DNA of 64,000 bases from a virus. Positions 2,722 through 8,863 of this stretch are shown here, piece by piece. Both the position numbers and the translations under genes were made by a program. The stretch is taken from the IMG/VR virus record IMGVR_UViG_3300025668_000786, positions 1 to 64,000 of that record. One strand, given 5' to 3'. The notes beneath the pieces are model-generated. The model was not told the origin of the DNA, searched no databases, and saw nothing but the letters and a program-made list of their open reading frames with translations. Numbering within the stretch: position 1 is the stretch's first letter; the number at the start of each line of letters is the position of its first letter.

Positions 2722-3954
2722 ATGCTTGATATACGAACAAATAGAAGAGACTTTATTAGAGTTGGTGGGCTTGGAATGAGCTACCTTTCTTTATCAGATG
2801 CTATATCTGCTGAGGAAGTCATATCGAATGAAAAATCTGTAGTTTGGGTTTGGCTGGGGGGTGGTCCCACACAATTTGAAACCTTCCACGCTCCAACTGG
2901 ACCCGTACCAGACACACACTCTTCTGTTAGCGATATTGTAACTCATAGTAATGGCCTTGCCTTTGGTGGGTTGTTTGAAAATTTGATCAAAAGAGGGGAT
3001 AATTTAACTGCTATAAACTCTTTTTCACATGGAGACTCTTCTCACAGGCAGGCTACTCACTGGATGATGACGGGTCAGCGCAACCCAAAGAGAGAAAATA
3101 CGGCAGATTCAGAATTTCCAGGTCATGGAGCAATTGTTTCGTCTGTTTTTGGCTCTAATCATCCTGCGAATGGAATGCCAGCATATGTCAAACAGGGTAA
3201 GATAGAAGGCGAACAACCCGCATTTCTTGGTGGATCGCACAAGCCATTCGACCCATCGAATAAAGAAAATCTATCTCCACGTATAGAATTAGATAGGTTC
3301 AAAGATAGGAAGGGTCTATTGGAGCGGTTCGATAAAAAAACCAACCTATCAAAGGATGCAGAGTCATTTGCAAAGATAGGAAAACAGGCGTACAACGTTA
3401 TAATGGGAGAGGCCAAAAACGCCTTTGACCTAGAAAAAGAAAAGCCAGAAACTAGAGAGCGTTATGGCAAGGGTGGCATCGGAGACCAAATGTTACTTGC
3501 TAAGAGGCTCGCTGAACACGGCACCAGGTTTGTCACCGTACATTACGGCGGGTGGGACATGCACAGTAATGTCAAAACAGCACTAGAGGGAAAGGTTCCC
3601 CCGCTAGACAAGGCTCTATCGGCCTTCGTTGATGACATATACGACTCTGGCCTTAGTAAAAACGTCATGTTGGTTGTGACTGGAGAATTTGGTAGAACCA
3701 GATTGAATGCCAACTCTGGACGCGATCATTGGCCGTCTATTACTCCTATGCTACTTTCGGGTGGAGACTATGAACACGGCAGAGTAATTGGAAAAGCAGA
3801 CAAGGGTTACTATCCAACTGATCAAAAAATTGGGCCAATTGATTTAGCGATGACCCTCTTTGATCACTTTAATATAGACCCCAAGATACAGAGAATAGAC
3901 CAAGGTGGAAGACCTAGATACTTACTGGACGGAGAAGGGAAGGTTATCTTGTAG
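2722..3954 (+). CDS. Tat-signal DUF1501 protein (alkaline phosphatase/sulfatase superfamily fold)
   Basis: This 410-residue protein starts with a twin-arginine export signal (R8-R9 in NRRDFIRVGG, then a short hydrophobic stretch ending AISAEE). The mature part matches DUF1501: VWVWLGGGPTQFETF near the start, HYGGWDMHSN in the middle and TGEFGRT followed by SGRDHWP around residue 320-335. DUF1501 proteins are predicted relatives of sulfatases and alkaline phosphatases; their substrates are unknown and they are especially numerous in Planctomycetota. The ATG at 2722 is preferred over an earlier in-frame codon (2683) because AAGGAGG lies just upstream (2710-2716) and it puts the RR motif at the N-terminus. 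A Tat-exported, host-type protein inside a phage replication operon is unusual. A second copy of equal length lies at 7631-8863. Confidence 0.85.
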   Translation: MLDIRTNRRDFIRVGGLGMSYLSLSDAISAEEVISNEKSVVWVWLGGGPTQFETFHAPTGPVPDTHSSVSDIVTHSNGLAFGGLFENLIKRGDNLTAINSFSHGDSSHRQATHWMMTGQRNPKRENTADSEFPGHGAIVSSVFGSNHPANGMPAYVKQGKIEGEQPAFLGGSHKPFDPSNKENLSPRIELDRFKDRKGLLERFDKKTNLSKDAESFAKIGKQAYNVIMGEAKNAFDLEKEKPETRERYGKGGIGDQMLLAKRLAEHGTRFVTVHYGGWDMHSNVKTALEGKVPPLDKALSAFVDDIYDSGLSKNVMLVVTGEFGRTRLNANSGRDHWPSITPMLLSGGDYEHGRVIGKADKGYYPTDQKIGPIDLAMTLFDHFNIDPKIQRIDQGGRPRYLLDGEGKVIL

Positions 3955-3993
3955 GACTTAAGAGGTTGTTATTACACATGCAAAGGGATTGCT

Positions 3994-4227
3994 ATGAAAA
4001 ATTTCTCACTAGGGTTTTTTGTTTGCCTTTCTTTATCATTAGGGACTTACTTATTCTGGGAAAATTATAGACATGTTCCCGTTATGATCAAACAGGTTCC
4101 CGTTTATATTTTTAAATCCCCATCAGGTTCACCTCTTAAGGTTCCACCTCCACCTATACCGGATGGCAGTGTAGCAAAAACTTTTAATTTTACATATGGA
4201 GACCACAGGCTTGGACGAAAACAATAA
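3994..4227 (+). CDS. Small membrane-anchored protein, unknown function
   Basis: This 77-residue protein has an N-terminal hydrophobic segment (LGFFVCLSLSLGTYLFW, residues about 6-22) that could be a signal anchor. A proline-rich stretch (KVPPPPIPDG) and a basic tail follow. The layout (one membrane helix, then a short extracytoplasmic proline-rich part) recalls spanin-type or small inner-membrane phage proteins, but no motif proves that. It sits directly after the Tat-exported DUF1501 gene and its last 32 bases overlap the next gene. Purine-rich AAAGGG about 8 nt upstream can serve as the ribosome site. I do not recognise the family. Confidence 0.55.
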   Translation: MKNFSLGFFVCLSLSLGTYLFWENYRHVPVMIKQVPVYIFKSPSGSPLKVPPPPIPDGSVAKTFNFTYGDHRLGRKQ

Positions 4228-6554: not shown

Positions 6555-7629
6555 CTATTTAGTTGTAGGCTGTGGTCTGTTTGGTGCTACATTTGCTAGA
6601 CAGGCTACGGACAGGGGTAAAAAATGTCTAGTCATCGATAAAAGAGGTCACATAGGCGGCAATTGTTTTACAAAGAAGAAGCTAGGAATAGATGTTCATG
6701 TTTACGGACCTCACATATTTCACACAAACAGTCAGTCTATATGGGACTACATCAATCAATTCACGGACTTCAACAACTTCACCTACAGGCCAAAGGTTAA
6801 CTACAAGAATCAGATTTATTCATTTCCAATAAATTTGATGACCCTATATCAAGTGTGCGGCGCGTCTACACCCAGCGAAGCAAAAGTCTATCTAGATAGT
6901 GTAAAAATTCATAATGAATCCCCCAAGAACCTAGAAGAGTGGATACTATCACAGGTCGGCAAAGAATTGTATGAAAAGTTTATTTATGGGTATACATACA
7001 AGCAATGGAATACAGATCCTAAAAATTTACCAGCATCAATCATAAAAAGACTACCGATTAGGCTAACTTATGACGATAACTATTTCAACGACAAGTACCA
7101 AGGCATCCCAACCGAGGGGTACTCTCAGATATTTAAAAATATGCTAGAAGGAATTCCTGTAGAATTAGAAAAAAACTACTTGACAAACCGTGACTCATAT
7201 GATAAAATGGCTAAAAGAGTGGTTTACACAGGGGCGATAGACGAGTTTTTTGAATACGAATACGGAGAATTAGAATGGAGAAGTCTTAGGTTTGAACGTG
7301 TTGAACGAAAAAACCTAGACCTTCAGGGGGTAGCAGCGGTAAATTATACAGATGTAGACACACCCCACACGAGAATAATCGAACACAAACATTTTAACAA
7401 CGTAGGGCAAAAAGATACTGTTTTTACTAAAGAATACCCCCAGACATGGACGAGGGGTAAAGAAAGATTCTATCCAGTAAACAACAAAAAGAATCAAGAT
7501 AGATTTTATAAGTACAAAAGCCTAATAGAAGATAAGTATATATTTGGCGGTAGGTTAGCGGAATATAAATACTATGACATGCACCAAGTTATTGCATCTG
7601 CAATAAATACAGCAAAGAAAGAGTTGTAA
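6547..7629 (+). CDS. glf: UDP-galactopyranose mutase
   Basis: This FAD-dependent enzyme converts UDP-galactopyranose to UDP-galactofuranose, the donor for Galf residues in bacterial surface glycans. The FAD-binding motif GCGLFG lies at residues 8-13, followed by VIDKRGHIGGNCF and YGPHIFHT, both typical of UGM. YEKFIYGYTYKQW and the C-terminal YKYKSLIEDKYIFGGRLAEY and YYDMHQVIASA are also conserved in the family. At 360 residues it is a normal full-length UGM. It overlaps the cytidylyltransferase gene by 8 nt and is followed 2 nt later by the second DUF1501 gene. This is one of the surest assignments in the glycan set. Confidence 0.93.
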   Translation: MYDYLVVGCGLFGATFARQATDRGKKCLVIDKRGHIGGNCFTKKKLGIDVHVYGPHIFHTNSQSIWDYINQFTDFNNFTYRPKVNYKNQIYSFPINLMTLYQVCGASTPSEAKVYLDSVKIHNESPKNLEEWILSQVGKELYEKFIYGYTYKQWNTDPKNLPASIIKRLPIRLTYDDNYFNDKYQGIPTEGYSQIFKNMLEGIPVELEKNYLTNRDSYDKMAKRVVYTGAIDEFFEYEYGELEWRSLRFERVERKNLDLQGVAAVNYTDVDTPHTRIIEHKHFNNVGQKDTVFTKEYPQTWTRGKERFYPVNNKKNQDRFYKYKSLIEDKYIFGGRLAEYKYYDMHQVIASAINTAKKEL

Positions 7630-7630
7630 A

Positions 7631-8863
7631 ATGAACAGACGAAATTTTATAGGACATTCAACGGGGCTTGCCGCTCTGTCTATGGCTTCGCTTACTTTTG
7701 GTCAGCAGATTATTAAGAATCATTCTAAACTTCATAAAGACCAAAAGGCTGCGATTCTCATATGGCTGGGCGGCGGCCCTCCTACTATTGATATGTGGGA
7801 TTTGAAACCGGGAACTAATGAGGGCGGCCCCTTTAAACCCATCAGTACTACTGGTGATTTTCAAATCTCAGAACATCTACCGCTCCTTGCTCAAAGAGGG
7901 GATGACTTCTCTCTCATTAGGAGTATGAGCACTCGTGAGGCAGATCATGGTCGTGGATCATATATGATGCACACTGGATTCTCTCCTAATCCCAATATGG
8001 TACACCCTTCTGTGGGAGCCGTAGTAGCTAATGAGATTGGCCCAACAAATGATAACCTTGAGATACCACCTTTCTTTTCTATCGACTCACGCAGTTTTGG
8101 AGGCGGCTTTCTGGGTACTGCTTGGAACCCCTTCTCCGTGAGAAGCAATGGTACTATACAAGATTTAGGAGGGCAAAATCTAAATGTCAATAGACTAAAA
8201 ATGCTTTCTATGATTGAAGACAATTTCATAAGAAGCAAGAGAGGGGACATGCCCAATGATCACAAGAAGTTACTTGAGAGAACCATTAAGTTGAGCACAA
8301 GCCCGCAGATGGACGCTCTAAAGATTCAACAGGAACCCGCACAGGTTCTTGAGGCGTATGGAAATACGGGATTGGGCCGTGGAGCACTTATGGCTCGGCG
8401 TTTAATTCAGCAGGGCGTGCCTTTTGTAGAAGTTGGCTTCGGAGGTTGGGATTTGCACAATATGACCCACGAAACCCTCCAGACAAAACTACCACAGTTA
8501 GATAGAGTTCTAAATTCTCTGATTTTTGACCTAAAAAGATTGGACATTTGGGAAAATACTGCTATAATAGTTATGGGGGAATTTGGTCGCACACCTCGCA
8601 TCAACCAGAATGCTGGTCGTGACCATTGGGCTGCTACGTGGTCCTCGTTTGTTTCCGGGGGTCTGTTCAAAGGAGGACAGGCTATTGGAAAAACCTCACC
8701 TGATGGAAAAATGATTGATGGAAAGTCTTATGTGGCTGCTGATTTGGTAGCAACAACCCTTACGGCAATGGGAATTGACATAAATAGGAACCATACTGCC
8801 AAGAACGGAAGACCGATAAAAATTGCTAATGGCGGTAGCGTAATAAAAGAATTGATTTCATAA
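7631..8863 (+). CDS. Second Tat-signal DUF1501 protein
   Basis: This 410-residue protein begins with a short twin-arginine signal (R3-R4 in MNRRNFIGHS) and a hydrophobic segment (GLAALSMASLTFG). DUF1501 motifs follow: ILIWLGGGPPTIDMWDLKPG, VEVGFGGWDLHN, and GEFGRTPRINQNAGRDHW near residue 316-333. It has the same length as the protein at 2722-3954 and the same motif order, but clearly different sequence, so the two are diverged paralogues or separate acquisitions. The family is related to alkaline phosphatases and sulfatases, with unknown substrate. The two copies bracket the GT29-cytidylyltransferase-Glf block. Export by the host Tat pathway is inferred. Confidence 0.85.
   Translation: MNRRNFIGHSTGLAALSMASLTFGQQIIKNHSKLHKDQKAAILIWLGGGPPTIDMWDLKPGTNEGGPFKPISTTGDFQISEHLPLLAQRGDDFSLIRSMSTREADHGRGSYMMHTGFSPNPNMVHPSVGAVVANEIGPTNDNLEIPPFFSIDSRSFGGGFLGTAWNPFSVRSNGTIQDLGGQNLNVNRLKMLSMIEDNFIRSKRGDMPNDHKKLLERTIKLSTSPQMDALKIQQEPAQVLEAYGNTGLGRGALMARRLIQQGVPFVEVGFGGWDLHNMTHETLQTKLPQLDRVLNSLIFDLKRLDIWENTAIIVMGEFGRTPRINQNAGRDHWAATWSSFVSGGLFKGGQAIGKTSPDGKMIDGKSYVAADLVATTLTAMGIDINRNHTAKNGRPIKIANGGSVIKELIS

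What the first reader, a model, noticed from the sequence alone, without database searches (positions are those of the whole stretch)
2722..8863. Two equal-length Tat-exported DUF1501 proteins flank the sialyltransferase-Glf block
Both are 410 residues with twin-arginine signals and the GEFGRT/GRDHW motifs, but are otherwise diverged. DUF1501 belongs to the sulfatase/alkaline phosphatase superfamily and is typical of Planctomycetota genomes, not of phages. Phage use of a Tat-exported enzyme is rare. They may remove sulfate or phosphate from host surface glycans or liberate phosphate, and they point to the host group.
Basis: partly seen in the sequence, partly recalled or inferred. Interest (0 to 1): 0.7.

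Follow-up and report, generated by a model that had tools for sequence, protein, structure and literature searches.

The report
Planctomycete-phage exported DUF1501 enzymes
A virus of uncultured Planctomycetota bacteria carries two host-derived enzymes tagged for export from the cell, and over a hundred related viral sequences carry one to four of them, captured several times from their hosts, so these viruses seem to reprogram the space outside the host's inner membrane.

Summary
Two 410-aa DUF1501 proteins (P0001, 2722-3954; P0002, 7631-8863; 27% identical) lie on a tailed-phage contig, each with a twin-arginine N-terminus. The equal length is chance, and the "flanking" is secondary: in related contig L006 the two genes are neighbours, and the space between them is a variable cargo slot.

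The setting is larger than one phage. At least 131 viral stretches encode P0001 relatives and 93 encode a second type. Four phage orthogroups (A=P0001, B, D, C=P0002) sit in same-strand clusters of up to four, often beside primase, exonuclease and DnaE genes. They are absent from PHROGs, and P0001/P0002 from 50,697 deposited phages. Nearest cellular relatives are planctomycetal (A ~44%, C ~53%, D ~65%, B ~70-75%). The tree needs about seven transfers; one origin of the two main C clades is rejected (AU p 0.01).

Twin arginine is present in 159/159 phage proteins. Predicted metal-ligand positions are invariant in 150/150 phage and bacterial rows; dN/dS is 0.04-0.11. Models show an NPP/sulfatase fold (Z 19-20), but neither protein has any cysteine or formylglycine motif, so ordinary sulfatase chemistry is ruled out. 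Most likely these are active periplasmic phospho-ester-type hydrolases supporting infection. Substrate unknown.

The parts
2722..3954 (+). P0001, A-type DUF1501, 410 aa, Tat signal NRRDFIRVGGLGMSYLSLSDAISA; predicted active-site positions E53, H108, D279, H281, E322, R325, R334-D335-H336
   Evidence: Pfam PF07394 9.5e-62; AF2 model pLDDT 80.7, VIA Z 19.9 to Xac NPP 2gsn; dN/dS 0.04-0.07
7631..8863 (+). P0002, C-type DUF1501, 410 aa, Tat signal NRRNFIGHSTGLAALSMASLTFG; predicted active-site positions D54, H106, D274, H276, E317, R320, R330-D331-H332
   Evidence: Pfam PF07394 2.1e-86; AF2 model pLDDT 83.3, VIA Z 19.6 to ENPP6; dN/dS about 0.1; planctomycetal relatives 48-55%
2703..2721 (+). Shine-Dalgarno-like AAAGGAGG within 13 bp after the exonuclease stop; P0001 looks co-transcribed with the replication genes
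   Evidence: Sequence; the DUF1501 gene starts -26 to 198 bp (mostly 1-30 bp) after the exonuclease in the 36 loci where they are neighbours
2..862 (+). DNA primase (partial at the contig start)
   Evidence: phrog_47 2.3e-34
859..1668 (+). deoxynucleoside monophosphate kinase
   Evidence: phrog_139 2.5e-40
1668..2708 (+). PD-(D/E)XK exonuclease, directly upstream of the DUF1501 genes
   Evidence: phrog_69 3.3e-20; PF12705 3e-20
3994..4227 (+). 77-aa protein with a hydrophobic N-terminus following the A-type gene; also in L005, L007, L085
   Evidence: Synteny cluster c77
4196..7629 (+). Variable cargo between A and C: unknown 356-aa protein, GT29 sialyltransferase-like, unknown 213-aa protein, UDP-galactopyranose mutase
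   Evidence: Pfam; absent between the pair in L006, similar block in L007
8917..12764 (+). DnaE in two parts with a DnaQ-type exonuclease gene between them, downstream of the DUF1501 genes
   Evidence: PF07733, PF00929, PF17657; order conserved in related loci
55582..63201 (-). Tape measure protein, showing a tailed phage
   Evidence: phrog_28 1.3e-16

Best explanation
These are host-derived, catalytically intact exported enzymes of planctomycete phages. Shown computationally: phages of one large uncultured group acquired DUF1501 genes several times from Planctomycetota and placed them in short same-strand clusters, in the window lineage beside the replication genes. All keep a twin-arginine N-terminus and an invariant set of residues that could bind metals. 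Inferred: after translation the host Tat machinery exports the folded enzymes to the planctomycete periplasm, where they hydrolyse phospho-ester (less likely sulfo-ester) bonds in host polymers or imported organic matter. By adding several host-type DUF1501 activities at once, the phage keeps nutrient supply or envelope turnover going while it makes DNA.
For: RR precedes the domain in 159/159 phage proteins, 158 as RRx[FL]. H106, W273-D274-x-H276, E317, R320 and R330-D331-H332 are invariant, and position 54 is always D or E, in 55 phage and 95 bacterial rows, so these are not decayed decoys; dN/dS is 0.04-0.11. Fold: Z 19-20 to nucleotide pyrophosphatases/phosphodiesterases and about 18 to sulfatases. 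Planctomycetal origin; AU test rejects one origin of two C clades, p 0.0104. Gene context: same strand, 15 of 49 adjacent DUF1501 pairs overlap by 4 bp, A directly after the exonuclease in 29 loci; the same phages carry RNR and PhoH genes and some carry a PAP2 phosphatase beside the cluster. No TatC in 16 phage records, so host Tat would be needed.
Against: No DUF1501 protein has a known substrate or demonstrated activity that I could find. No catalytic nucleophile is identified: an invariant His stands where AP-superfamily enzymes have Ser, Thr or formylglycine, and this register rests on a motif count and the model's helix start, not on a superposition. In host genomes the two orthogroups checked (B, C) lie beside DUF1549/DUF1553 genes, which 30 of 31 phage contigs lack, so the phage copies may act through host partners rather than alone. 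Contigs are linear fragments. The host link rests largely on these same genes.
Confidence: 0.5

Rival explanations
1. Envelope remodelling or superinfection exclusion: the exported enzymes trim charged groups from host surface glycans, together with the glycosyltransferase/Glf cargo, so that sibling phages no longer bind.
For: GT29-like and Glf genes lie between the two DUF1501 genes here and in L007; other cargo genes are glycosyltransferases.
Against: The glycan cargo is absent between the DUF1501 genes of most related contigs, yet they persist; up to four distinct host orthogroups are kept, more than one receptor change needs.
Confidence: 0.25
2. Subunit substitution or interference: phage DUF1501 proteins replace host DUF1501 partners in exported DUF1501-DUF1549/DUF1553 modules and redirect or block them.
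For: Host B and C relatives lie beside DUF1549/DUF1553 genes; 30 of 31 phage contigs carry DUF1501 without the partner, and the exception (L104) has both, adjacent.
Against: All catalytic-type residues are retained with strong purifying selection, which a blocking decoy would not need. Physical interaction of DUF1501 with DUF1549/DUF1553 proteins is not established here.
Confidence: 0.2
3. Misclassified or chimeric contigs: the genes belong to planctomycete chromosomes, not phages.
For: DUF1501 is very abundant in planctomycete genomes: 26 to 147 matches to P0001 in each of four.
Against: Conserved primase/dNMP kinase/exonuclease/DnaB/UvsX/DnaE/RNR/PhoH neighbours across dozens of contigs, tape measure on the window contig, phage-only clades.
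Confidence: 0.03

Closest known systems
Pfam PF07394 (DUF1501) of Planctomycetota, often beside DUF1549/DUF1553 (PSCyt2/PSD1) genes
   Same: Full-length domain, Tat-type N-terminus, all invariant residues; tree placement inside the planctomycete family
   Different: Carried by phages, clustered 1-4 together, usually without the DUF1549/DUF1553 partner
Nucleotide pyrophosphatase/phosphodiesterase (NPP) family of the alkaline phosphatase superfamily (Xac NPP 2gsn, ENPP6)
   Same: Core fold, Z 19-20 over about 245 residues; D, H and E/D ligand-type residues
   Different: 12-16% identity; GEFGRT in place of the DH motif; His instead of Thr at the presumed nucleophile position (register inferred)
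Formylglycine sulfatases (PF00884)
   Same: Fold (Z about 18); weak profile match centred on GEFGRT versus GDHGR
   Different: No cysteine and no C/S-x-P/A-x-R motif in either window protein
Phage auxiliary metabolic genes in general (host-derived genes on phage genomes)
   Same: Host-derived, under purifying selection, next to replication and nucleotide genes
   Different: Tat-exported enzymes of unknown substrate, in multi-paralog clusters captured repeatedly; none found in the held papers

Membership tests
DUF1501 (PF07394) | Full-length match above the curated cut-off | tested here: met
   209.8 and 291 bits, cut-off 27
Tat-exported proteins | N-terminal RRx[FL] followed by a hydrophobic stretch | tested here: met
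   RRDFI and RRNFI in the window proteins; 158/159 phage relatives
Tat-exported proteins | Actual Tat-dependent export | not testable with these tools
   Needs a reporter assay
Alkaline phosphatase superfamily | Core fold | tested here: met
   VIA Z 19-20, rmsd about 3.2, about 245 residues
Alkaline phosphatase superfamily | Ser/Thr/formylglycine nucleophile and bimetal ligand set | tested here: inconclusive
   Invariant H106, D274, H276, E317, H332 and D/E54; no conserved Ser/Thr/Cys at the presumed nucleophile position; global hhalign does not fix the register
Formylglycine sulfatase (PF00884) | C/S-x-P/A-x-R signature | tested here: not met
   Zero cysteines and no motif in P0001 or P0002
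Planctomycete DUF1501-DUF1549/DUF1553 modules | Adjacent DUF1549/DUF1553 gene | tested here: not met
   No DUF1549 on the window contig or on 29 others; present in L104/G027 only
Host-derived (auxiliary metabolic) phage gene | Cellular origin and phage genomic context | tested here: met
   Nested in Planctomycetota; phage replication genes alongside
Host-derived (auxiliary metabolic) phage gene | Boosts host metabolism during infection | not testable with these tools
   Needs a cultured phage-host pair

The most novel reading that the evidence does not exclude
A large group of planctomycete phages runs a dedicated export programme: several Tat-exported DUF1501 enzymes, with small anchored proteins, a secreted protease and PAP2 phosphatases as recurrent neighbours, take over periplasmic polymer processing during infection. 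The enzymes use an alkaline-phosphatase fold with an invariant histidine in place of the usual nucleophile, that is, a new catalytic variant.
Probability: 0.2. Interest if true: 0.85.

Novelty: new variant of a known kind. Interest (0 to 1): 0.62.

Why it matters
DUF1501 is hugely expanded in Planctomycetota (26-147 matches per genome in four genomes checked) and has no known function. That phages captured it several times, keep up to four versions with every conserved residue, and link them to replication genes says the family does something that matters during infection. It gives a marker for phages of Planctomycetota, whose phages are barely known, and a small set of phage genes with which to find the function of the family.

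Tried and rejected
Chimera or bacterial contamination: rejected by conserved synteny in other assemblies. Cultured phage relatives: none for P0001/P0002 in 50,697 records; one weak B-type hit, 30% over 37%. PHROGs: no family. Solved structures by sequence: no significant hit, but sulfatases, an LtaS-type synthase and ENPP4 align weakly at GEFGRT. Global hhalign against planctomycete sulfatases to fix the nucleophile register: too weak and placed with a two-residue gap, so the His-for-nucleophile reading stays an inference. BFVD search found one DUF1501-annotated uncultured phage protein at low TM. DUF1559 as a second planctomycete marker: only in L104. Literature: 10 papers in the library name DUF1501, and the searches pairing it with phage or auxiliary metabolic genes gave nothing on phage DUF1501 beyond a weak hit for a 61-aa ORF in PMC5418858.

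Full report
Check of the observation. The two ORFs are exactly as described: 2722-3954 and 7631-8863, 410 aa each, both DUF1501 over the full domain, 27% identical. The record is a 70,750-bp IMG/VR virus contig with primase, dNMP kinase, exonuclease and tape measure. The equal length is coincidence: A-type relatives are mostly 411-420 aa.

Not a frame around the glycan block. In L006 the two genes are neighbours, in L005 two small ORFs lie between, in L007 a GT/Glf block like that of the window does. The interval is a variable cargo slot. In L004-L007 the same order primase-kinase-exonuclease leads into the A-type gene (with one extra gene in L006), so a misassembly at 2,700 is unlikely; the junction at 8,900 to DnaE recurs in L006 and, with one small ORF added, in L007.

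Scale. IMG/VR holds at least 131 stretches encoding P0001 relatives, 25 matching P0002 patterns, and 93 of a second type. A tree of 159 phage proteins gives four main orthogroups, here A (P0001), B, D, C (P0002); loci show A, A-C, A-B-C, A-B-D-C and other combinations, always on one strand and often with 4-bp overlaps. All 31 records searched whole have at least one DUF1501 gene and at most four. The neighbours are DnaB, UvsX, primase, exonuclease, DnaE, ribonucleotide reductase and PhoH genes. Some B-type loci from other contigs lack these core genes in the stretch fetched, so the second scan covers more than one phage group.

Origin. P0002's nearest cellular relatives are nearly all Planctomycetota, best 55%. 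In 392 sampled planctomycete genomes the best matches are 44% for A, about 71% for B (75% in the NAT69 Rhodopirellula MAG) and 65% for D. In the joint tree phage rows need nine changes of label, seven forced by supported branches. For C alone, holding the window's clade and the second main phage clade together is rejected (p-AU 0.0104); the two groups were chosen after seeing the first tree, so the p-value is somewhat optimistic. One bacterial row, L192, lies among phage B rows, so recent exchange either way is possible there.

Selection and active site. Twin arginine precedes the domain in 159/159 phage proteins. Across 55 phage and 95 bacterial rows H106, W273, D274, H276, E317, F318, R320, G329, R330, D331, H332, R394 and P395 are invariant, and position 54 is D or E in all (P0002 numbering). 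dN/dS is 0.04-0.11 against close relatives, although several dS values are near saturation. AlphaFold models (pLDDT 80.7 and 83.3) match NPP enzymes (Z 19-20) and sulfatases (Z about 18); rows within 1 Z unit are ties. Both proteins lack cysteine entirely and lack the formylglycine motif. By motif count, the invariant His lies ten residues before the G of the TG motif, where sulfatases carry the formylglycine Cys (TCSPSRATLVTG in L234) and, from my own knowledge of ENPP1, NPPs carry Thr; in both models this His begins the helix. D-type proteins have a loop two residues shorter, and the profile alignment did not confirm the register. I therefore treat histidine-as-nucleophile-or-ligand as a hypothesis.

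Function. In hosts, B and C relatives sit beside DUF1549/DUF1553 genes, and B also with a cytochrome-domain WD40 protein. Phages carry DUF1501 alone, except L104, which has the DUF1549/DUF1553 gene directly before it. TatC was not found in 16 phage records, so host Tat must do the export. Published notes agree on Tat targeting of one bacterial DUF1501 group (PMC5122149) and state that the domain has no biochemical characterisation, linking it to PVC bacteria with intracellular membranes (PMC4452313). I favour periplasmic hydrolysis that supports infection, because several distinct host orthogroups are retained intact next to replication genes; envelope remodelling and partner substitution remain open.

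Limits. All contigs are fragments and none is rated complete. The host assignment rests mainly on DUF1501 itself; L104's DUF1549/DUF1553 and DUF1559 genes are supporting evidence from one contig that is distant from the window's lineage. The search of IMG/VR uses peptide patterns, so counts are lower bounds.

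Noticed in passing
window 8917-12764: DnaE is split into two ORFs with a DnaQ-type exonuclease ORF between them, overlapping at both junctions; the same three-gene order recurs in many related phage loci (c16-c22-c23).
   Followed up: partly
window 4196-5266; L007:12186-13235; L069:16635-18539; L093:12303-14285: Unknown and glycosyltransferase proteins of these phages share an N-terminal cysteine motif (CQCExAGFCxxFxxEM...PPNWQWC), possibly a small metal-binding module.
   Followed up: no
L076:16923-17267, L061:15115-15453, L012:9075-9395, L029:15692-16051: Small proteins with one hydrophobic N-terminal segment and a C-terminal H..G.H plus CxxC-like motif directly follow the C-type DUF1501 gene in at least 18 loci.
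   Followed up: no
L072:6568-7236, L011:9042-9998, L026:1722-2690: PAP2-superfamily phosphatase and secreted trypsin-like protease genes lie beside the DUF1501 clusters.
   Followed up: partly
L104:3120-5793 and 14300-15418: One virus contig carries an adjacent DUF1549/DUF1553-DUF1501 pair and a DUF1559 protein with a prepilin-type N-terminus, both hallmark planctomycete families.
   Followed up: partly
L330 (contig of 319,857 bp): A 320-kb virus record, jumbo-phage size, encodes a B-type DUF1501 protein 66% identical to the query.
   Followed up: no
window 43367-55567: A 4066-aa ORF next to the tape measure gene, not identified here.
   Followed up: no
L085:7185-8438: A DUF1501 gene at the A position but only 35% identical to P0001, on a very long branch: perhaps a replacement of the A-type gene by another capture.
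   Followed up: no
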